Shown here: positions 1 through 17,476 of the stretch, piece by piece | How the letters are laid out: every line of letters begins with the position of its first letter | Position numbering within the stretch: the stretch's first letter is position 1 | Assembly: GCA_945947575.1 (NCBI GenBank) | Contig: CAMEYM010000018.1 | Location: forward strand, 1-64,000 | Origin: Rhizobium sp. Q54 | Lineage (GTDB): Bacteria; Pseudomonadota; Alphaproteobacteria; UBA2966; CAIVPW01 | Length of the DNA: 64,000 bases | Reading direction: 5' to 3' | The notes under the pieces: generated by a model | Told to the model about the DNA's origin: nothing | Database searches by the model: none | Seen by the model: the letters and a program-made list of their open reading frames with translations, nothing else | Made by a program: the position numbers and the translations under genes

Positions 1-391
<391 letters not shown>

Positions 392-8873: not shown

Positions 8874-9374
8874 TCAGGGACCAAGAATCGGTTTGCCGTC
8901 CATCTGCCGCCACTCCCACGGCGTGGTGAAGCGGATGGTCGGCTGCCACAGGCCGAGGCCCTTGGCGCGGGCCTCTTCCTCGAGGGCGATGTACTTGTCG
9001 GACTGCGGCCGGAACGCCACCGCCCAGCCCTGGCGCACCAGGTCCGCGCCGATGTCGAGCTCGCCCAGCCGGCAGGTCATGTAGGCGATGCCGATGAAGT
9101 TCTTCTCGCCCGAGTCGGTGCAGTTGACCGGGCCGAGGTCGACCAGGGTCTCGAGGGCGCGCTTGGCATTGGTCGCGCAGCCAAAGCGCGTGCGTCCGGC
9201 CAGGCAGTCGTTGTCCTGGTCCGGGTCCGGCGCATCGATGCCGTACAGGCTGATGCGCTGGTTGCCGATGGTGATCTGGTCCGACGTGATCGCCCGCGCC
9301 CGGCCGGTGACTTCTTGTGCCGCCACAGGTGCACTCAACGCGGCGCCCATCGCCGCGATCCACAACGCTCGCAT
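8874..9374 (-). CDS. Exported SNase-like (thermonuclease homologue) protein, copy 1
   Basis: This 166-aa protein has a signal peptide (about 1-20, ending APVAAQ) and a staphylococcal-nuclease-like OB-fold domain recognised by RISLYGIDAPDPDQ, CATNAKRALETLV and GWAVAFR-SDKYIALEEEAR. Classical SNases have an E after the xDAP motif (catalytic Glu43); here it is Asp. Several Cys residues (near 60-70 and 85-100) could form disulfides. The ATG at 9374 has an AGGAA site. It is the last gene of a three-gene set with a 46-aa lipoprotein and a paralogue. Nuclease activity is not assured. Confidence 0.85.
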   Translation of the reverse strand: MRALWIAAMGAALSAPVAAQEVTGRARAITSDQITIGNQRISLYGIDAPDPDQDNDCLAGRTRFGCATNAKRALETLVDLGPVNCTDSGEKNFIGIAYMTCRLGELDIGADLVRQGWAVAFRPQSDKYIALEEEARAKGLGLWQPTIRFTTPWEWRQMDGKPILGP

Positions 9375-9406
9375 GCTTGTTCCTGAACTGAATTGCTGTT
9401 GGAGGA

Positions 9407-9547
9407 CTACTGCGTGCCGACCTTGAACACCGCGAGCGGCGCCAGCGCCTTGTTGATCTCCTGCAGCGTGCCGGTCAGCGCGCTGCGATCGGTGGAATTG
9501 CACGCGGCGATGGTCAGCACCGCCGCGACGAAGAGCAGAGTGCGCAC
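9407..9547 (-). CDS. Tiny lipoprotein (46 aa)
   Basis: A GTG at 9547, directly after the TAG of the upstream SNase-like gene, opens a 46-codon frame. It encodes a short basic start (MRTLLF), a hydrophobic stretch and a lipobox ending at Cys16 (LTIAAC), then a 30-residue mature peptide ending FKVGTQ. The codons look like those of the neighbours. The lipobox, the tight coupling and the clean stop support a real small lipoprotein of unknown function, perhaps working with the two flanking SNase-like proteins. Confidence 0.6.
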   Translation of the reverse strand: MRTLLFVAAVLTIAACNSTDRSALTGTLQEINKALAPLAVFKVGTQ

Positions 9548-10084
9548 CTACGGTCCGAGCAGCGGGCGGCCGTTCATCTCGCGCCACTCCCACGGCAGGG
9601 TGTAGCGGATGCCGTCCTGCCACATGCCCTTCTTCGCCGCCTTGGCCTGCGCCTCGGCCGCAACATACTTGTCCGACTGCTGGCGCAGGGCAAACGCCCA
9701 CCCATCGCGCACCAGGTCTTCGGCAAGGTCGAGGTCGCCGCGCTTGCAGATCATGTACGGGAAATTGACATAGTTGCGCACGCCGGTGTCGGTGCAGGTC
9801 ACCGGGCCGAGATCGACGAGGATCTCCAGCGCCCGCTTGGCGTTGGTGAAGCACCCATAGTACGCGCGCCCGGCAATGCACTCGCGGTCCTGGTCGGGGT
9901 CCGGCGCGTCGATGCCGAACAGCGAGATGCGCTGGGTGCCGATGACGATCTGGTCGGCCTGCAAGGCGCGGGCGCGGCCGCTGATCGGCTCCATCAGAGG
10001 CGCCTGGGCCAAGGCTGCGGCCGGCAGGAGCACGGCGAGCACCGCCGCCGCCACAAGCCTCAACCCCGCCGCCCAACCGCGCAT
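9548..10084 (-). CDS. Exported SNase-like protein, copy 2
   Basis: This 178-aa paralogue of the 8874-9374 product has a signal peptide (about 1-27, ending AALAQA) and a matching domain: RISLFGIDAPDPDQD, CFTNAKRALEILV and GWAFALRQQSDKYVAAEAQA, ending in PLLGP like its partner. The Asp-for-Glu change after DAP is shared, so it predates the duplication. The start was taken at ATG 10084 because the residues upstream are not part of the signal peptide. It is the first gene of the set with the small lipoprotein and copy 1. Confidence 0.85.
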   Translation of the reverse strand: MRGWAAGLRLVAAAVLAVLLPAAALAQAPLMEPISGRARALQADQIVIGTQRISLFGIDAPDPDQDRECIAGRAYYGCFTNAKRALEILVDLGPVTCTDTGVRNYVNFPYMICKRGDLDLAEDLVRDGWAFALRQQSDKYVAAEAQAKAAKKGMWQDGIRYTLPWEWREMNGRPLLGP

Positions 10085-10487
10085 CGCCGCAACTCCGCCC
10101 TTCGAGAGGCGCGGAGTATAGGGGCGGGGGCGCGGGGCGGCTAGGTTGCCGCCCTGCCCGCCCGCGCAGAAAAGGTGGTCACGATTCATGTAGGCGCACC
10201 CCGCTCACCCCGGCGCGAGACCAGCGGCTTGCCTGGCTTTCCCGGGATAGTGGCAGGGTTGCCGCCGCAACGTTCTGTTACCGGCCCAACCTTGCCGCGC
10301 TGGGCGGCGCCATGGCTCAATGCCACTAATTCCCGGACGGCGCCTGTGGTTTGGGTGCTGGCCGCCCCAAGTGCGTCAAACCGGAGCGCGCCTCCGGCGC
10401 GACGGAAACCGCCCCCCAGCGCGTTGTTGGTAGGCGAAATCGCTCGGAGCGAAGCCAGTCCCAGCCACGATCGCCGGCAACCCGTAG
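10085..10487. other. Intergenic region before ECF operon
   Basis: About 400 bases separate the divergent SNase-like and sigma-factor genes. It contains a CCGGAG-CTCCGG hairpin near 10380-10400 but no recognisable gene. It must hold the promoters of both neighbours. I could not find a convincing ECF-type GGAAC/GTC promoter pair by eye. Confidence 0.4.
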
Positions 10488-11075
10488 GTGGCCGTGGGTC
10501 AGCTAGCTCCGATGAAGGCACTCCCGGCGGCGGAGTCCGACGACGCGCTGATGCAGCGCCTCAAGGGCGGCGATGGCGCCGCTTTCGGGGAACTGCTGGG
10601 CCGTCACGCGGGGGCCGTCGCGGGTTTCTCGTATCGGATGCTCGGAAATGCGGCTGAAGCGGATGACATTGCCCAGGAGACCTTCCTTCGCCTTTGGCGG
10701 GGCCGGGAAAAGTGGGAGCCGCGCGCCCAGGTCCGTACCTGGCTGCTGCGGGTCGCCCACAACCTGTGCATCGACCGTTTCCGCCGCCGCGAGGTCGTAA
10801 CGAATGAGTTTCCGGAGGTGGCCGATGGGCGCCCCTCCCCGGCCGCCGAGCTGCAGAGCAAGCAGGTCGGCAGGATCGTACTAGAGGCGTTGGCAGCGCT
10901 CCCCGAGAGGCAGCGCTCCGCAATTGGACTGGTGTACTATGAGGGACTTAGCAACGTCGAGGCAGCGGAGGTGCTGGGGGTCAGCATCGACGCACTCGAA
11001 TCGTTGCTGTCTCGCGGCCGGCGAAGCCTTCGTCACAACCTTTCGCACCTGCATCCTCATCTCGGGGAGGAGTGA
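10488..11075 (+). CDS. ECF-family RNA polymerase sigma factor
   Basis: This 195-aa ECF sigma factor has region 2 (FGELLGRHAGAVAGFSYRML, then DIAQETFLRLW, WLLRVAHNLCIDRFRR) and region 4 (LPERQRSAIGLVYYEGLSNVEAAEVLGVS) joined by a short linker. It recruits RNA polymerase to a dedicated set of promoters. The start may be GTG 10488 or ATG 10512; neither ribosome site is strong. It is followed at once by a membrane protein and a periplasmic sensor, an arrangement like CnrH with CnrY and CnrX, and then by efflux-pump genes, which are its likely targets. Confidence 0.92.
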   Translation: MAVGQLAPMKALPAAESDDALMQRLKGGDGAAFGELLGRHAGAVAGFSYRMLGNAAEADDIAQETFLRLWRGREKWEPRAQVRTWLLRVAHNLCIDRFRRREVVTNEFPEVADGRPSPAAELQSKQVGRIVLEALAALPERQRSAIGLVYYEGLSNVEAAEVLGVSIDALESLLSRGRRSLRHNLSHLHPHLGEE

Positions 11076-11077
11076 AG

Positions 11078-11575
11078 ATGGCAGGCAATGACACTCATCC
11101 CCGTGGCTTCCGCCTTGGGGATGCAACGGTGAACGTCCGCGCCCAACAGATCCTCGCCACCTATGGCGCGGCGCCGCAGCGCTGGCCGCTCGAAGAGCGC
11201 GGCACGGTGCTCGACGCGCTGATCCAGGATCCGTCCATCACCGGCGCGCATCGCCGCGAGGCGGCGCTCGATGAGGTTCTGGCCGAGGCGCCGCGTCACG
11301 CGCCGTCCGCTGCGCTGCTGACGCGCATCCGTGCCGGTGCGGTGCCTGCCGTGCGCCGGGGCTGGCGCGCGACGCTTGCGGTGCTGTTCAGCACGCCTTC
11401 GGTCGGCTTCCTGCGTCCGCTGTCGGCGCTCGCCGGCGCGATCGTGCTGGGCGTGATCGTCGGGGCCATTTGGGCGCCGGCGGATGACGCCAACGCGATG
11501 GCTGCGGAGTTCGTCAATTTGGCTTTCGGCCACGACTTCCAGGGCGAGCCGGCTTTCGGAAGCGGCCTCGAATGA
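11078..11575 (+). CDS. Probable membrane-bound anti-sigma factor
   Basis: This 165-aa protein has a soluble N-terminal part (about 1-110) and one transmembrane helix (about 115-138, LSALAGAIVLGVIVGAIWAP), then a short outer tail. It lies between an ECF sigma factor and a periplasmic sensor and overlaps the latter (ATGA), so by position it is the anti-sigma factor that holds the sigma factor at the membrane. It has no zinc-binding ZAS motif (HxxxCxxC). The ATG at 11078 has GGGGAGG seven bases before it and is preferred over GTG 11072. The assignment is mainly from context. Confidence 0.65.
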   Translation: MAGNDTHPRGFRLGDATVNVRAQQILATYGAAPQRWPLEERGTVLDALIQDPSITGAHRREAALDEVLAEAPRHAPSAALLTRIRAGAVPAVRRGWRATLAVLFSTPSVGFLRPLSALAGAIVLGVIVGAIWAPADDANAMAAEFVNLAFGHDFQGEPAFGSGLE

Positions 11576-12024
11576 CCGCGACCCTGTCGCGCGGCTGGAC
11601 CGCAGTGCTGGTCGCCTCGCTCGGCGCCAATCTGTTCGTCGCCGGATTCGTCGTGGCGCGATCGGTGCGCGGCGATTCGGTCGAGACCCCGCAGGTCGCA
11701 GCGACAGCGGCACCGGCGGCGCCCGCTGCAGCAACGACCCCCGCGGTGCGCCGAGTCATCGAACAGAACAAGGCCTTGCGCCCCAGCCTGGTGGCGGTGC
11801 GACGGGCGAACGAGGCGGTTACCGCCGCTCTGTTGGCGGAGCCGTTCGATCCCCAACAGCTCGACGTGGCGCTTGAGCGTCTGCGCGGCATGACGCTGGC
11901 GAGCCAGGCGGCGCTGCACGGCACGATGTTGGATGCAATTGCGGCCATGACGCCGGAGCAGCGGCGTCAATTTGCCGAGGCTTCACGGCGTTCTCCTGCG
12001 GAACGCGTCTTCCTGGGGCGGTGA
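11572..12024 (+). CDS. Periplasmic heavy-metal sensor-like protein (Metal_resist/CnrX type)
   Basis: This 150-aa protein has an N-terminal membrane anchor (about 8-29), an Ala-rich linker and a helical periplasmic domain. The domain has the family pattern RRANEAVTAALLAEPFDPQQLDVALERLR and ends with MTPEQRRQF, an LTxxQ-like motif. The same fold occurs in CnrX, ZraP and Spy/CpxP, which sense metals or envelope stress. His and Met ligands of CnrX are not obvious, so the signal may not be Ni/Co. Its stop overlaps the start of the MacA-like gene. Confidence 0.75.
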   Translation: MTATLSRGWTAVLVASLGANLFVAGFVVARSVRGDSVETPQVAATAAPAAPAAATTPAVRRVIEQNKALRPSLVAVRRANEAVTAALLAEPFDPQQLDVALERLRGMTLASQAALHGTMLDAIAAMTPEQRRQFAEASRRSPAERVFLGR

Positions 12025-14018
12025 CTATGATGAACGAAGGAATTCGCCGGAGCCGCTGGCCCCGGCGCTTGATGCAAGGTGCCTTGGTCGTCGTCGTGGC
12101 GGGCGGCGCCGGCTACTACTTCCTGCGCTCCAGCGCCGAGGGCGGACCGGTCGAGTACCGCTTCGGTACGGTTGAGCGCGGCACCATCACCAACGTCGTG
12201 TCCTCGACCGGCAAGGTCGTCGCCGTCGGCGAGGTCAAGATCTCCAGCCAGGTCGCCGGCCAGATCATCCAGGTGCTGGCCGACTACAACACCCCCGTGA
12301 CGGCGGGCACAGTGTTGGCGCGCCTCGATCCCGAGGCATTCCTGTCAAAGGTCGCGCAGGCCGAAGCCGACCTCGCCATTTCGCGCGCCTCGCTCTTGTC
12401 GAACCGCGCTTCGGTCGAGCGCTCGCAGTCCGACCTCCGCAACGGCGACGCGTCGCTGCAATCGCTGCAGGCGCAGCTCGCCAACTCGCGCATTTCGCTC
12501 GAGGCGGCCGAGCGCGATTACAACCTGCAGCGCGAGCTCTTCGCCCGCAACGTCGTCGCCACCAAGGCGGTCGACGACGCCACCACCAAGTACGAGCAGG
12601 CCAAGACCAACTTCGACCAGATCACCGCCAACATCCAAGGCTCGCTCGCAACCCAGGAAGGCCGCAAGGCATCCTTGGCACAGTCGAACGCGTCGGTGAC
12701 GACCGCCGAAGCCCAGGTGAAGCAGCGGGAGGCGCAGCTCGCCTCGGCGAAGATCGAGCTCGAGCGCACGGTCATCAAGGCGCCGGTCGATGGCACGGTC
12801 ATCGACCGCACCGCCGAGGTCGGCCAGACGATCCAGAACAACTCGAACACCGCGCTGTTCACCGTCGCCCAAGATCTGCGCCAGATGCAGCTTGAGGTCA
12901 GCGTCGATGAAGCTGACATCGGCAAGATCGCGCAAGGCATGCTCATCAAGTTCAACGTCGACGCGTTCCCCGGCCGCGAGTTCCAGGCGACCGTGCGTCA
13001 GGTGCGCCTTGCGCCTAAGACGGTGCAGAACGTCGTCACCTACACGATCATCGCTTCGGCGCCGAACACCGACATGTCCCTGCTTCCAGGCATGACGGCG
13101 ACGGCGCGCGTCATCATTGAGGAGCGCGCCAACGCGATGCGCATTCCGAATTCGGCGCTGCGCTATGCGCCCGCCGGGTACCAGGCACCGGCAGCGGCTG
13201 CACCCGCGACCGCCGCTGGCGGAGCGGCAGCGATCGCCCAGGCCGGACAGGCGCCTGGCGCTGGGGCCAACCGCGCGGCCCAGGCTGGCGGCGGCGGCCA
13301 GGCCGCCGCCCAGGCCGGTCAGGGCAACCGCAACGCGCAACCGGCGCCGACCGCGCAGACCGGTGGCGCGCCCCAAGGAGGTGCCGGTGGCAACGCGAAG
13401 AACGCCAACCAGGGCGGTGGCGCGGGCGGAGCCGCGGGCGCACTCGCGCAGTTGGGCCAGCTCGGCCTCAGCGAGGCCCAGACCCAACAGGTCACCCAGG
13501 CGATCGCCGCGGCGCGCACCCAGGCGCAGGCCGCTGGCGGCACACAACAGGAAATCCAGCAGCGCCTGCAGCTGGCGCAGCGCCAGGCGATCCTGGCGGC
13601 GCTGACACCAGAACAGCGCACGCGCTTCGAGGCGATCGAGCGGCAACAGGCTGCGGCGGGAGCTGGCGCGGGCCAAGGTGGCCAAGCCGTCGCCGCAACC
13701 ACGGCGCCGGCCAACATCCCGGTTGCTACGGCTGCCGGCGCACGCAATGCGGCGAGTCGTGCTCGCGCCGCACGAGTGTTCGTCCTGGGACCTGAGGGCA
13801 AGCCAGTGGCGATCGACGTCATGATTGGGATCACCGACGGCGGCTTCACCGAGATGGTGCAGGGCGACGTGCAGCCCGGAACCAAAGTGATTACCGGCTC
13901 CAACGAGGTTGCGACAGCGGCCACAGCGAACACCAACAATCCTCTGGGTGGCCTTTTCGGCGTCGGCGTCGGCGGCGGTGGTGGCGGTGGCGCAGCTCCG
14001 CAGGTATTCCTCAAGTAA
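12021..14018 (+). CDS. macA: MacA-like periplasmic adaptor (HlyD family) with large insert
   Basis: This is an efflux adaptor of the MacA type: membrane anchor (about 18-35), lipoyl half-motifs around a long coiled coil (about 95-250, SKVAQAEADLAISRASLLS and AQVKQREAQLASAKIELERT), and a beta-barrel (VDEADIGKIAQGM, FPGREFQATVRQVR). At 665 aa it is far longer than MacA (about 370-400). An insert of roughly 170 residues, first Gly/Ala/Gln-rich, then helical with LTPEQRTRFEAIERQ, separates the barrel from the membrane-proximal end. A Gly-rich tail follows. GTG 12021 overlaps the sensor's stop; ATG 12027 or 12030 is also possible. Confidence 0.88.
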   Translation: MTMMNEGIRRSRWPRRLMQGALVVVVAGGAGYYFLRSSAEGGPVEYRFGTVERGTITNVVSSTGKVVAVGEVKISSQVAGQIIQVLADYNTPVTAGTVLARLDPEAFLSKVAQAEADLAISRASLLSNRASVERSQSDLRNGDASLQSLQAQLANSRISLEAAERDYNLQRELFARNVVATKAVDDATTKYEQAKTNFDQITANIQGSLATQEGRKASLAQSNASVTTAEAQVKQREAQLASAKIELERTVIKAPVDGTVIDRTAEVGQTIQNNSNTALFTVAQDLRQMQLEVSVDEADIGKIAQGMLIKFNVDAFPGREFQATVRQVRLAPKTVQNVVTYTIIASAPNTDMSLLPGMTATARVIIEERANAMRIPNSALRYAPAGYQAPAAAAPATAAGGAAAIAQAGQAPGAGANRAAQAGGGGQAAAQAGQGNRNAQPAPTAQTGGAPQGGAGGNAKNANQGGGAGGAAGALAQLGQLGLSEAQTQQVTQAIAAARTQAQAAGGTQQEIQQRLQLAQRQAILAALTPEQRTRFEAIERQQAAAGAGAGQGGQAVAATTAPANIPVATAAGARNAASRARAARVFVLGPEGKPVAIDVMIGITDGGFTEMVQGDVQPGTKVITGSNEVATAATANTNNPLGGLFGVGVGGGGGGGAAPQVFLK

Positions 14019-14044: not shown

Positions 14045-14794
14045 TTGGCGACGTCCGTCGTACAGACCGTCGATCTCCGCAAGGAGTATCGGATGGGAAC
14101 CAACGTGGTGAACGCGCTGGCTGGCGTTTCGGTGCGCATCGAGCCCGGCGAGTTCGTCGCCGTCATGGGGCCCTCGGGCTCCGGCAAGACGACGTTCATG
14201 AATCTGCTGGGCTGTCTCGATCGGCCTTCCGCGGGGAAGTACCTGTTCGAGGGGCATGAAGTCTCGGCGTACGACCACACCGAGCTCGCGCGCCTGCGCA
14301 ATCAGAAGATCGGCTTCGTGTTCCAGAACTTCAACTTGCTGCCGCGCATCACGGCGCTCGACAACGTCGCGTTGCCGCTCGCTTACGGCAAGTTCGCGCG
14401 CGGCGAGCGCCGCCAGCGCGCCGAGGTGGCGTTGAGGGAAGTCGGCCTCGGCGACCGCATGGACCACCGGCCGGTGCAGTTGTCCGGCGGCCAGCAGCAG
14501 CGCGTCGCCATCGCCCGCGCCATCGTCGGCTCACCGTCGCTGATCCTGGCCGATGAGCCGACGGGCGCGTTGGACACCAAGACCGGCGTCGAGATCATGG
14601 GCATCCTGCAATCGCTCAACGACCGTGGCATCACCATCGTGCTGGTGACTCACGAGCCGGACATCGCCGAGCACGCAAGCCGCGTGCTCAGCTTCCGCGA
14701 CGGCCGCATGATTCGCGACGAAAAGGGCGTTGGCCGCCGCGCCGGCGCCCCCCCAGCCTCACAACCGCACCTGGTGGCCGTAGCAGGCCATTGA
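14045..14794 (+). CDS. MacB-type ABC transporter ATPase
   Basis: This 249-aa ATPase has Walker [11 protein letters not shown]-loop FQNFNLLPR, signature LSGGQQQR, Walker [13 protein letters not shown] and H-loop THEP. It belongs to the LolD/MacB branch ([20 protein letters not shown]). In E. coli MacB the ATPase and permease are one protein; here they are separate genes. The start is TTG 14045, with GAGG eight bases upstream. It should pair with the permease that follows and power export through the MacA-like adaptor. Confidence 0.93.
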
Positions 14795-14807: not shown

Positions 14808-16037
14808 ATGACCCCCGCCGACCTGCTCTTCTCCGCGCTGCAATCCCTGCGCTCCAACACCATGCGCAGCGTGCTGACGGCCCTCGGCATCATCATCGGT
14901 GTCGGCGCGGTGATCACCATCGTCGCCATCGGCGCCGGCGCCCAGGCCAACATCGAGAAGGTCATCGAGCAGATCGGTTCCAACATGCTGACCATCTCTC
15001 CCGGTCAGGCGCGCGACGGCGGCGCCCAGCAGGGCGCGGCCAGCCGCCCAACCCTGACCGCCGAGGACGCCGACGCCCTGAAGACGGTGCCCGGCGTCTC
15101 GGCCGTGGCGCCCGAAGTCCGCGGACCGGTGCAGGTCATCCTGGGCAACCAGAACTGGCGCACCAACGTCGTCGGCATCACCGAGGACTTCTTCACGGTG
15201 CGCAACTGGAAGCTCAACAAGGGCCGCAACTTCGAGGACTGGGAGATCGACGCCGGCGAGAAGATCGTCATCCTCGGCTCGACCGTCGCCGAGAAGGTGT
15301 TCCCGGGCTCGGACCCCATCAATCAGATCATCCGCATCGACCGAGTGCCGTTCACCGTCATCGGCGTCACGGCCGCCAAGGGTCAATCGAGCTTCGGCCA
15401 AAACCAGGACGACATCATCTTCGTGCCGCTGAAAACAGCGCAACAGCGCATTCTCGGCGGCCGCCTGATCAAGCCCGACTCGGTGCAGCAGATCGCCGTG
15501 CTGGCGCGCACCGCCAAGGAAGTGGACGTGGTCGAGCGCGACCTCGCCGAGCTTCTGCGCGATCGCCACGCGATCGTCCCGGGCCGCGCTGACGACTTCC
15601 AGATCCGCAACACGTCGGAAATCTTCCAGGCTCGGGCCGGCGCCACCGAGGTCATGACCCTGTTGCTCACCGCCATCGCGTCGGTGTCGCTGCTGGTCGG
15701 TGGCATCGGCATCATGAACATCATGCTGGTGTCGGTGACCGAGCGCACTCGTGAGATCGGCGTGCGCATGGCGATCGGCGCCAGCCGCACCGACGTCATG
15801 ATGCAGTTCCTTATCGAGGCGCTGGCGCTGTCCATGATCGGCGGCATCATCGGCATCATCCTCGGCATGATTTGCTCCCAGCTCACGGCCCACTTCGCCG
15901 GATGGCCGCTGCGCATCGAGATGACGTCGATCCTGCTGGCGGTGGGCTTCTCCGCCGCGGTCGGCATCTTCTTCGGCTACTATCCGGCCCGAAAGGCGGC
16001 ACGACTGGACCCGATCGAGGCCCTGCGCTACGCCTAA
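14808..16037 (+). CDS. MacB-type ABC transporter permease
   Basis: This 409-aa permease has one N-terminal helix (about 20-45), a large periplasmic MacB-PCD domain (about 50-270) and the C-terminal FtsX-like three-helix block. Family motifs are SVLTALGIIIGVGAVI near the start, VTERTREIGVRMAIGAS in the cytoplasmic loop and YYPARKAARLDPIEALRYA at the end. It transmits ATP-driven motion to the periplasm rather than carrying substrate through the membrane. It is 13 bases downstream of the ATPase gene. Confidence 0.93.
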   Translation: MTPADLLFSALQSLRSNTMRSVLTALGIIIGVGAVITIVAIGAGAQANIEKVIEQIGSNMLTISPGQARDGGAQQGAASRPTLTAEDADALKTVPGVSAVAPEVRGPVQVILGNQNWRTNVVGITEDFFTVRNWKLNKGRNFEDWEIDAGEKIVILGSTVAEKVFPGSDPINQIIRIDRVPFTVIGVTAAKGQSSFGQNQDDIIFVPLKTAQQRILGGRLIKPDSVQQIAVLARTAKEVDVVERDLAELLRDRHAIVPGRADDFQIRNTSEIFQARAGATEVMTLLLTAIASVSLLVGGIGIMNIMLVSVTERTREIGVRMAIGASRTDVMMQFLIEALALSMIGGIIGIILGMICSQLTAHFAGWPLRIEMTSILLAVGFSAAVGIFFGYYPARKAARLDPIEALRYA

Positions 16038-16135: not shown

Positions 16136-17476
16136 ATGCGTACAGGGGGAAGTTTCGTTCTCGCGCTGGTGTTCCCGCTGGCGGTGGCAGCGCCGGCTGC
16201 CGGACAGACCCTGACCGACGCGCTCGCGCAGGCGTATCTCACCAACCCGGGCCTCGCGGCGCAGCGCGCCAGCATGCGCGCCACCGATGAGCAGGTGGCA
16301 CAAGCCAACTCGCAGAAGCGGCCGTCCCTATCGCTGAGCACGGGCATCACGACGTCGTACACGTCGAACGGCACCGCCGCGCAATCGACCAACTCCCCCG
16401 CGCTGACGTTGAGCGTCAGCCAACCGCTCTACCGTGGCGGCCGGATCGAGGCGGGCATCGATCAGGCGGAAGCGGCCGTGCTGGGTGCGCGCGCGCGCCT
16501 GCGTACGACGGAACAGACCATTCTTGCGTCGGTGGTCGAGTCCTACATGGGCGTGCTGCGCGACCAGGCGGTGCTGCAGCTGAATACGAACTCGGAGCAG
16601 GTGTTCCAGGGCGAGCTCGCCGCGGCGCGCAACCGCTTCCAGCTAGGCGCCGCGACTTCGACGGATGTCGCCACCGCCGAGTCGCGCCTCTCCAATGCGT
16701 CTGCCGCGCGCATCCAGGCGGAAGGCGCCTTCCGCACCAGCCTGTCCAACTTCGAGCGCATCGTTGGCGTCGCGCCGTCCAACATGGCCACGCCAGATTC
16801 GCTGCTGGTGCTGCCGAACTCGCTTGAGGAAGCGATCGCGATTGCCCTCAACGAAAGCCCGACCGTGCTGACCGCTTTCTATTCGGAAGAGGCCGCCCAA
16901 GCGAGCTTGCGCTCCGCCAACGGCGCGCGCCTGCCCACGGTATCCCTCTCCGCCAGCACGTCGCGGCGTTCCCCCGATTGGCCGGACTTGACGCCGCCGA
17001 CCTTCGCGAGCTCGATCGGCGTCAGCGTCTCGGTGCCGCTCTACCAGTCCGGCGGCGAGTTCTCGTCTATTCGCTCGGCCATGGAGAACCTCACGGCGTC
17101 ACGTCTGAGCCTCGAGGACGCGCGCCGCACTGCCCGCCAGGCGGTGACCCAGTCGTGGCAGGGTCTCGCCACGGCGCGGGCGCAGATTCTTGCGCGCGGC
17201 GACCAGGTGCGCGCGTCGGAGAGTGCGCTGCGCGGCTTCCGCCAGGAATACGAAGTGGGGGCACGCACACTGCTCGAGGTGCTGAATGCCGAGCAGGACC
17301 TGCTCAACGCCCGCGTGTCGCTGGTCACCTCGCGCCGCGACGAGGTCGTCGCCAGCTACGGCCTGCTCTCGGCGATGGGGCGCCTGACCGCCCAGACCCT
17401 GGGCCTGCCGGTTCCGGTCTACGATCCGACCGCGAACTACAATCGCGTCGATAACAAGTGGTGGGGGCTGAACTAG
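16136..17476 (+). CDS. TolC-family outer-membrane efflux protein
   Basis: This 446-aa outer-membrane factor has a signal peptide (about 1-23, ending AAPAAGQ) and two OEP repeats, typical of TolC. Features are LTDALAQAYLTNPGLAAQRA at the mature start, SVSQPLYRGGR, its repeat counterpart SVSVPLYQSGGEFS, and EVGARTLLEVLNAEQDLLNAR near the end. ATG 16136 has AGGAGG six bases upstream, so the long open frame ahead of it is not coding. It completes a MacA-MacB-TolC tripartite pump in one operon. Confidence 0.92.
   Translation: MRTGGSFVLALVFPLAVAAPAAGQTLTDALAQAYLTNPGLAAQRASMRATDEQVAQANSQKRPSLSLSTGITTSYTSNGTAAQSTNSPALTLSVSQPLYRGGRIEAGIDQAEAAVLGARARLRTTEQTILASVVESYMGVLRDQAVLQLNTNSEQVFQGELAAARNRFQLGAATSTDVATAESRLSNASAARIQAEGAFRTSLSNFERIVGVAPSNMATPDSLLVLPNSLEEAIAIALNESPTVLTAFYSEEAAQASLRSANGARLPTVSLSASTSRRSPDWPDLTPPTFASSIGVSVSVPLYQSGGEFSSIRSAMENLTASRLSLEDARRTARQAVTQSWQGLATARAQILARGDQVRASESALRGFRQEYEVGARTLLEVLNAEQDLLNARVSLVTSRRDEVVASYGLLSAMGRLTAQTLGLPVPVYDPTANYNRVDNKWWGLN

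What the first reader, a model, noticed from the sequence alone, without database searches (positions are those of the whole stretch)
13170..13720. MacA-like adaptor with a Gly/Ala/Gln-rich insert carrying an LTxxQ-type helix
About 170 extra residues interrupt the membrane-proximal part of the adaptor. The second half is helical with LTPEQRTRFEAIERQ, strikingly like MTPEQRRQF of the sensor encoded just upstream and like Spy/CpxP LTxxQ motifs. The adaptor may itself hold a stress- or substrate-sensing module or bind the sensor.
Basis: seen in the sequence. Interest (0 to 1): 0.55.

Follow-up and report, generated by a model that had tools for sequence, protein, structure and literature searches.

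The report
Efflux-pump adaptor with built-in Spy-like module
The connector protein of a MacAB-TolC-like export pump carries, in the part that touches the pump motor, a small helical domain related to the periplasmic chaperone Spy, shared by many related bacteria, which suggests that the pump has its own arms for catching what it exports.

Summary
Confirmed and extended. The MacA-like adaptor (window 12030-14018) carries a 204-residue insert where seven module-less relatives have 14-24. It is a disordered Gly/Ala/Gln linker, a 75-residue four-helix module with two LTxxQ-type motifs (LSEAQ, LTPEQ), and a second linker. It is not a private oddity: 49 of 75 MacA-like adaptors put on a tree (a chosen set, not a frequency) have the module at this site, 48 of them on one side of a supported branch, and all 45 with enough contig downstream are followed by a split MacB. 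A 12-module profile finds Spy first in the PDB (E 5.7e-6; reversed control best 0.17, no Spy). HHalign of 46 modules against 28 separately gathered LTXXQ proteins gives 96% (50 shuffled controls at most 0.4%). The modelled module's best structural matches are Spy, Spy, CnrX, Spy, at modest Z. The upstream Metal_resist sensor is not a general partner: 9 of 49 module loci have one nearby, and its profile does not match the module. The modules have no Cys and almost no His, so metal sensing is unlikely. Best reading: a tethered Spy-like client-catching arm beside the MacB entry. Relatedness to Spy/LTXXQ is well supported; function is inferred.

The parts
12030..14018 (+). MacA-like periplasmic adaptor, 662 aa from ATG 12030 (665 aa from GTG 12021)
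   Evidence: Pfam HlyD_3 and HlyD_D23 over cut-off, NCBIfam RND_mfp over cut-off; best solved relatives MacA
12030..13160 (+). adaptor core (residues 1-377): TM anchor, lipoyl/barrel-sandwich, long alpha-hairpin (about 101-245), beta-barrel, first strand after the barrel
   Evidence: hairpin confident in the model, barrel and lipoyl parts are not
13161..13427 (+). linker 1 (residues 378-466), Gly/Ala/Gln-rich, predicted disordered, indel-rich between congeners
   Evidence: pLDDT about 24-27; 17-20 gapped positions
13428..13652 (+). Spy-like LTxxQ module (residues 467-541), four helices
13467..13481 (+). first LTxxQ-type motif, LSEAQ
13602..13616 (+). second LTxxQ motif, LTPEQ
13653..13772 (+). 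linker 2 (residues 542-581), Ala/Gly-rich
13773..14018 (+). return to the membrane-proximal domain (RVFVLGPEGKPVAIDV...) and Gly-rich C-terminus
   Evidence: module-less relatives align here to E. coli MacA after its SALG
10488..11075 (+). ECF sigma factor
   Evidence: Pfam Sigma70_r2 and r4_2
11072..11575 (+). protein with one hydrophobic segment, anti-sigma-like by position only
   Evidence: no Pfam match; hydropathy
11572..12024 (+). Metal_resist (PF13801) sensor-like protein, one hydrophobic segment
   Evidence: E 3e-12, 47.2 bits against cut-off 29.2; hydropathy
14045..14794 (+). MacB-type ATPase (separate gene)
   Evidence: best NCBIfam match PRK10535 MacB, below its equivalog cut-off
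14808..16037 (+). MacB-type permease (MacB_PCD + FtsX)
16136..17476 (+). TolC-like outer membrane factor
   Evidence: Pfam OEP 2.4e-67; start

Best explanation
The insert is a Spy/CpxP-type (LTxxQ) four-helix module spliced between two flexible linkers into the membrane-proximal domain of a MacA-like adaptor that works with a split MacB and a TolC-like exit duct. SHOWN by computation: its relatedness to LTXXQ/Spy proteins, its position, its conservation, and that the module-bearing adaptors examined are, with one RND-type exception, encoded beside MacB wherever the contig reaches. INFERRED: in the assembled pump the adaptor ring carries several such modules around the periplasmic domain of MacB. 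They act as tethered ATP-independent capture arms that bind partly unfolded or amphipathic peptide/protein clients in the periplasm, keep them soluble and hand them to the MacA-MacB cavity. The disordered linkers give reach and may help client release, as the disordered N-terminus does in Spy.
For: Profile of 12 modules: top four PDB sequences are all Spy, E 5.7e-6 to 1.3e-5, both LTxxQ motifs in register in the three alignments shown; reversed profile best 0.17, no Spy. HHalign of 46 modules against 28 separately gathered PF07813 proteins: 96.2%, P 2.4e-9; 50 column-shuffled controls at most 0.4%. Pfam's LTXXQ model in the six-frame search reaches its cut-off on four adaptor genes, G135, G362, G238 and G392. 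Module model: four helices; best matches Spy Z 6.8, Spy 5.8, CnrX 5.8, Spy 5.7. Tree: 49 of 75 adaptors with the module, 48 on one side of a branch with support 96/86 (59 rows); 6 label changes against 21.7 in shuffles. 45 of 49 module loci show MacB ATPase and permease downstream; the other 4 end at contig edges. The four module-less congeneric paralogues have no MacB pair beside them. The insertion point maps to MacA just after SALG; passages of a review say the MacA MP ring contacts the MacB periplasmic domain, that a periplasmically accessible cavity forms between them, and that substrates, small proteins included, are taken from the periplasm (PMC5985334). Precedent for a substrate-binding domain fused to an adaptor: SilB with a CusF-like C-terminal domain (PMC4446572). 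Spy's disordered N-terminus aids client release (PMC9122904).
Against: No functional data. The window's own copy is below Pfam's LTXXQ cut-off (17.5 bits against 24.3 for the module alone; E 0.64 for the longer insert). Scanned as whole proteins, only 1 of 9 chosen adaptors passes that cut-off (L138 of G135, 26.8 bits); G238, G362 and G392, which passed, give 20.6-21.9 here, one more (L143) is below cut-off, and four show no LTXXQ at E<=0.1. Plain Foldseek gave no match at E<=0.001; Z under 13 is weak for helical bundles, and an unrelated ribonucleotide reductase chain follows Spy/CnrX at Z 5.1. The full-length model is poor (pLDDT 46), so placement in the ring is not modelled. 21 of 25 module-less adaptors also sit beside MacB, so the module is not required for such pumps. 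In the aligned register the hairpin is shorter than Spy's, and dimerisation, which makes Spy's cradle, could not be tested.
Confidence: 0.55

Rival explanations
1. The module is a structural brace: Spy-like hairpins pair between neighbouring adaptor subunits, or pack on the MacB periplasmic domain, and stabilise the adaptor ring. It binds no client.
For: Spy is a dimer (PMC9122904); the MP ring contacts MacB (PMC5985334); strongest conservation is in hydrophobic positions and the two motif Gln columns; close link to MacB-type adaptors.
Against: Flanked by long, indel-rich linkers predicted disordered, odd for a rigid brace; absent from 10 adaptors on the same side of the branch, 6 of which still have both MacB genes.
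Confidence: 0.22
2. The module is a regulatory contact: it binds the Metal_resist sensor encoded just upstream and reports pump occupancy to the ECF sigma factor.
For: Sensor genes precede the adaptor in the window and its family f1 relatives and in three of four f31 loci, mostly with a sigma-factor gene in view, and one further locus has both divergently; the sensor carries MTPEQRRQF near its end.
Against: 36 of 45 module loci with both MacB genes lack a sensor homologue nearby, 32 of them with at least 2 kb upstream in view; L047 keeps sigma factor and sensor with a degenerate module; sensor and module profiles do not match.
Confidence: 0.1
3. Metal-binding module of the CnrX/ZraP kind that feeds or senses a metal.
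For: CnrX is among the top structural matches; the neighbouring gene is of the Metal_resist family.
Against: No Cys in 46 modules and one His in only 5 of 46; the window adaptor has no His or Cys at all. The neighbouring pump is MacB-type, not a heavy-metal RND.
Confidence: 0.04
4. Low-complexity expansion without function whose helices resemble LTxxQ by chance.
For: Gln/Ala/Gly-rich; the linkers evolve fast.
Against: Conserved across many families and in three adaptors from outside the class; shuffled and reversed controls fail; few gaps and dN/dS below 0.25 in the module.
Confidence: 0.03

Closest known systems
Spy / LTXXQ family (PF07813), with CpxP, ZraP and CnrX as recalled relatives
   Same: Two LTxxQ motifs, short helix - hairpin - helix plan, profile match in register, best structural match of the model
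   Different: Embedded in an adaptor rather than free in the periplasm; shorter hairpin; no metal ligands; window copy below Pfam's cut-off
MacA of MacAB-TolC (PDB 5nik, 9qgy)
   Same: Core architecture, insertion site mappable, partner ATPase/permease and TolC-like duct
   Different: MacA has no insert there; a longer hairpin region here (window 126-214 against MacA 119-151 unaligned); ATPase and permease are separate genes; below the MacA equivalog cut-off
SilB of Cupriavidus metallidurans (adaptor with a CusF-like C-terminal domain)
   Same: Adaptor carrying a fused periplasmic substrate-binding domain that also exists alone (passages of PMC4446572)
   Different: Metallochaperone domain at the C-terminus of a metal RND adaptor, not a helical Spy-like module inside the MP domain of a MacB adaptor
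CnrYXH-type sigma control with a CnrX sensor (recalled)
   Same: Sigma factor, membrane protein and Metal_resist protein in a row upstream
   Different: The sensor family found no CnrX in the PDB search; not shown to sense metal

Membership tests
LTXXQ / Spy (PF07813) | two LTxxQ motifs bracketing a helical hairpin | tested here: met
   LSEAQ 480, LTPEQ 525; four helices
LTXXQ / Spy (PF07813) | profile similarity of the module family to Spy/LTXXQ | tested here: met
   with controls
LTXXQ / Spy (PF07813) | Pfam gathering score reached by the window's own protein | tested here: not met
   17.5 bits (module alone) against 24.3; reached by four adaptor relatives, of which one (G135) also as a whole protein. 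Hence called a relative of the family, not a Pfam member
LTXXQ / Spy (PF07813) | Spy fold | tested here: inconclusive
   VIA-align Z 6.8 to Spy is the top row, but Foldseek alone has no hit at E<=0.001
LTXXQ / Spy (PF07813) | dimeric cradle and chaperone activity | not testable with these tools
   needs protein
Periplasmic adaptor, RND_mfp (TIGR01730) | score over the curated cut-off | tested here: met
   138.2 against 94.9
MacA proper (PRK11578) | equivalog cut-off | tested here: not met
   98.7 against 342: MacA-like, not MacA
MacA-type adaptor | encoded with MacB-type ATPase and permease | tested here: met
   adjacent genes; 45 of 49 module loci, the rest at contig ends
Metal_resist sensor (PF13801), for the upstream gene | Pfam gathering score | tested here: met
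   47.2 against 29.2
CnrX-like metal sensor, for the upstream gene | similarity to CnrX structures | tested here: inconclusive
   no CnrX among 7 weak PDB hits; one His conserved in all 6 aligned sensors

The most novel reading that the evidence does not exclude
A class of chaperone-armed tripartite pumps: MacB-type exporters whose adaptor ring bears built-in Spy-like holdase arms that collect unfolded or amphipathic periplasmic clients and feed them to the pump, coupling periplasmic protein quality control to export. A second fusion (L140: RND-type adaptor beside two RND transporters, module at its C-terminus) suggests that the combination arose more than once.
Probability: 0.35. Interest if true: 0.78.

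Novelty: new variant of a known kind. Interest (0 to 1): 0.6.

Why it matters
How MacAB-type pumps recognise periplasmic substrates is open (passages of the review PMC5985334 ask for substrate-bound structures and a better view of the substrate range). An adaptor family with a removable Spy-like module at the MacB-facing domain makes the question testable: delete or swap the module and ask which substrates are lost. It also extends fusion of a substrate-binding domain to an adaptor, known for the metallochaperone domain of SilB, to a protein-chaperone-like domain, and offers a domain label for proteins whose module-less plasmid relatives are mostly annotated only as 'efflux RND transporter periplasmic adaptor subunit'.

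Tried and rejected
Sensor partnership as the general explanation: rejected by distribution and by the profile comparison. Metal binding: rejected for lack of ligands. Chance or low complexity: rejected by controls and conservation. Full-length structure: only three close sequences went in, the model is poor and no ring placement was attempted. Foldseek alone: no hit at E<=0.001. Whole-protein Pfam scan of nine chosen adaptors: LTXXQ over cut-off in 1, listed below cut-off in 4, not listed at E<=0.1 in 4.

Plasmid survey with L048's adaptor (540 aa given): 27 records matched and none covered 80% of the query; 26 of the 27 listed matches end at query 356-357, before the module, and one ends at 285. 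Six were fetched; their adaptors are 430-484 aa by annotation and give no module match at E<=1. No plasmid-borne or cultured, named example of the module was found; the named records with it are metagenome-assembled (L005, L007).

Rows dropped or labelled by hand: of 50 stretches first pulled out with the module profile, three (L152, L153, L154) have no adaptor match and were dropped before the 46-row comparison, as was the RND-type L140; the conservation figures still include these four. L230 (wrong frame picked) and L221 (long frame) were dropped from the LTXXQ set. In the tree L187 and L142 were labelled module-bearing by hand: L187 runs off its contig, and the rest of the gene appears to lie on L155 of the same genome with module and MacB; L142 has a weak match (E 4.9e-4). 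The 75 tree rows are those I fetched, 20 of them chosen from the matches, so 49 to 25 is no frequency. My first neighbourhood script used a wrong reading frame as TolC query; those TolC rows are not used, and the gene was re-read.

Literature: no paper holding both LTXXQ and HlyD; 13 papers hold LTXXQ, none on adaptors by title (listing only); other listings; the 2026 adaptor review has no occurrence of Spy, chaperone, inserted or fused in its main text (term search). Most subscription journals are not in that library.

Full report
WHAT IS THERE. The adaptor reads as 662 aa from ATG 12030. Pfam and NCBIfam place it among periplasmic adaptors (HlyD_3 55.8 bits, HlyD_D23 49.6, RND_mfp 138.2, all over cut-off), below the cut-off for MacA proper (98.7 against 342). 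The best solved relatives by sequence are MacA chains. Between MRIPNSAL and RVFVLGPE lie 204 residues (378-581, window 13161-13772), where seven module-less relatives have 14-24. The stretch divides into a linker to 466, a helical module 467-541 and a linker 542-581. The module holds two LTxxQ-type motifs, LSEAQ (480) and LTPEQ (525), and no other string of the form L[STND]xx[QR] occurs in the protein. A profile of ten module-less relatives aligns nearly end to end with E. coli MacA and places the insertion point just after its SALG, where the chain passes from the beta-barrel into the returning half of the membrane-proximal domain (the domain assignment is recalled).

OPERON. Upstream lie an ECF sigma factor, a protein with one hydrophobic segment and no Pfam match, and a Metal_resist protein; downstream lie a MacB-type ATPase, a MacB-type permease as a separate gene, and a TolC-like protein.

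IS IT REAL. Single-sequence searches are weak: LTXXQ at E 0.64 for the long insert and 0.0071 for the module alone. The family signal is strong. Of 12 modules from this and other families, 9 match Pfam LTXXQ at E<=10, best 3.6e-6. Their profile finds four Spy sequences first among 177,635 distinct PDB sequences (5.7e-6 to 1.3e-5), with both motifs in register in the three alignments shown; the reversed profile finds no Spy and nothing under 0.17. Pfam's LTXXQ model run six-frame over 40 genomes of my choice reaches its cut-off on four adaptor genes, and finds nothing at E<=0.001 in the window's own genome. As whole proteins only one of those four passes (nine adaptors scanned: 1 over, 4 below, 4 not listed). 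HHalign of 46 modules against 28 proteins gathered with the Pfam model gives 96.2% (P 2.4e-9), against at most 0.4% in 50 column-shuffled controls and 0.6% for a reversed control made from the 50-row set. Within the genus the 75-codon module has 0, 1 and 1 gapped positions and dN/dS 0.14, 0.16 and 0.24 in three comparisons; the first linker has 17-20 gaps and 0.24-0.44 (several dS values are near saturation).

STRUCTURE. The module alone, with two close homologues, is predicted as four helices, pLDDT 85-89 in the helical blocks. Foldseek alone gives nothing at E<=0.001. VIA-align on 58 candidate chains ranks Spy 5wo3 (Z 6.8, 62 residues, 2.5 A), Spy 6owz (5.8), CnrX 3zg1 (5.8) and Spy 5wo2 (5.7) first, with an unrelated enzyme next at 5.1. 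Such Z values are weak for helical proteins, so this only agrees with the sequence result. In the full-length model the long alpha-hairpin is confident, the module blocks lie at 56-76, the first linker at about 24-27, and the rest is poor.

DISTRIBUTION. In a class-wide sample 41 of 385 genomes match the module profile. By my count 33 of these are MacA-like adaptors (all 33 are in the tree) and one is an RND-type adaptor (L140). Of the other seven, three (L084, L085, L087) read as stand-alone Spy-like proteins, one (L152) reads as no adaptor, and three, in frames of 163-180 aa, were not read. In a phylum-wide sample 42 of 398 match; three MacA-like adaptors lie outside the class (G707, G702, G615), and the other matches outside the class lie in frames of 129-396 aa that were not read as proteins, save that L154 shows no adaptor match. 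On a maximum-likelihood tree of 75 adaptor cores, made without the insert, 49 are labelled with module, 25 without and 1 degenerate. One side of a branch with support 96/86, 59 rows, holds 48 of the 49; the module label needs 6 changes (3 forced by well-supported branches) against 21.7 in shuffles. The single row outside, L134, is a very long branch, and the root is drawn at the midpoint. Within the window's family the branch with the orphan paralogues and the degenerate L047 has lost it. The module thus looks old in this group, with later losses. Of the 49, 45 have both MacB genes downstream and 4 run into contig ends; 9 of 49 have a sensor homologue nearby; of the 36 with MacB and no sensor, 32 show at least 2 kb upstream. 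21 of 25 module-less adaptors also have MacB; the other 4 are the orphan paralogues of the genus.

HOW IT MAY WORK. [quoted passage not shown] A figure legend of an adaptor review links MP domains to transporters with prominent periplasmic domains and suggests substrate presentation; the same review describes SilB, an adaptor with a CusF-like metallochaperone domain. Spy binds clients on a positively charged concave face, and its disordered N-terminus speeds release (passages). By inference, this module is a tethered client-catching arm. Metal sensing is unlikely: no Cys in 46 modules, one His in 5 of them. Partnership with the upstream sensor is not general. A structural brace remains the main rival.

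NOVELTY. Both parts are known; the combination, its site and its spread were not found in print in the searches run (as listings; passages or term searches). I rate it a new variant of a known kind.

Noticed in passing
   Followed up: partly
own genome C1:90592-91971 (L039): Orphan paralogue of the adaptor without module and without a MacB pair, next to genes that read by eye as RpoN and PtsN; similar module-less, MacB-less copies in congeners (L042, L044, L045).
   Followed up: partly
window 11572-12024: One His is invariant in the six aligned homologues of the upstream sensor, followed by Met three residues later in 4 of 6; whether it binds a ligand is unknown.
   Followed up: no
window 12030-14018: The 662-residue adaptor contains no histidine and no cysteine.
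   Followed up: yes
window 8874-10189, minus strand: Two neighbouring open frames share a SLYGIDAPDPDQD / SLFGIDAPDPDQD stretch and more (by eye), apparently a tandem duplicate.
   Followed up: no
L239 2033-7169 (Leisingera caerulea plasmid): A module-less adaptor with ABC ATPase and permease, preceded by annotated anti-sigma, sigma-70 family and cupin genes: another sigma-linked arrangement of this pump type.
   Followed up: no
G000 whole genome: Pfam LTXXQ finds no match at E<=0.001 in the window's genome, so the adaptor module may be its only LTxxQ-type domain besides the Metal_resist sensor.
   Followed up: partly
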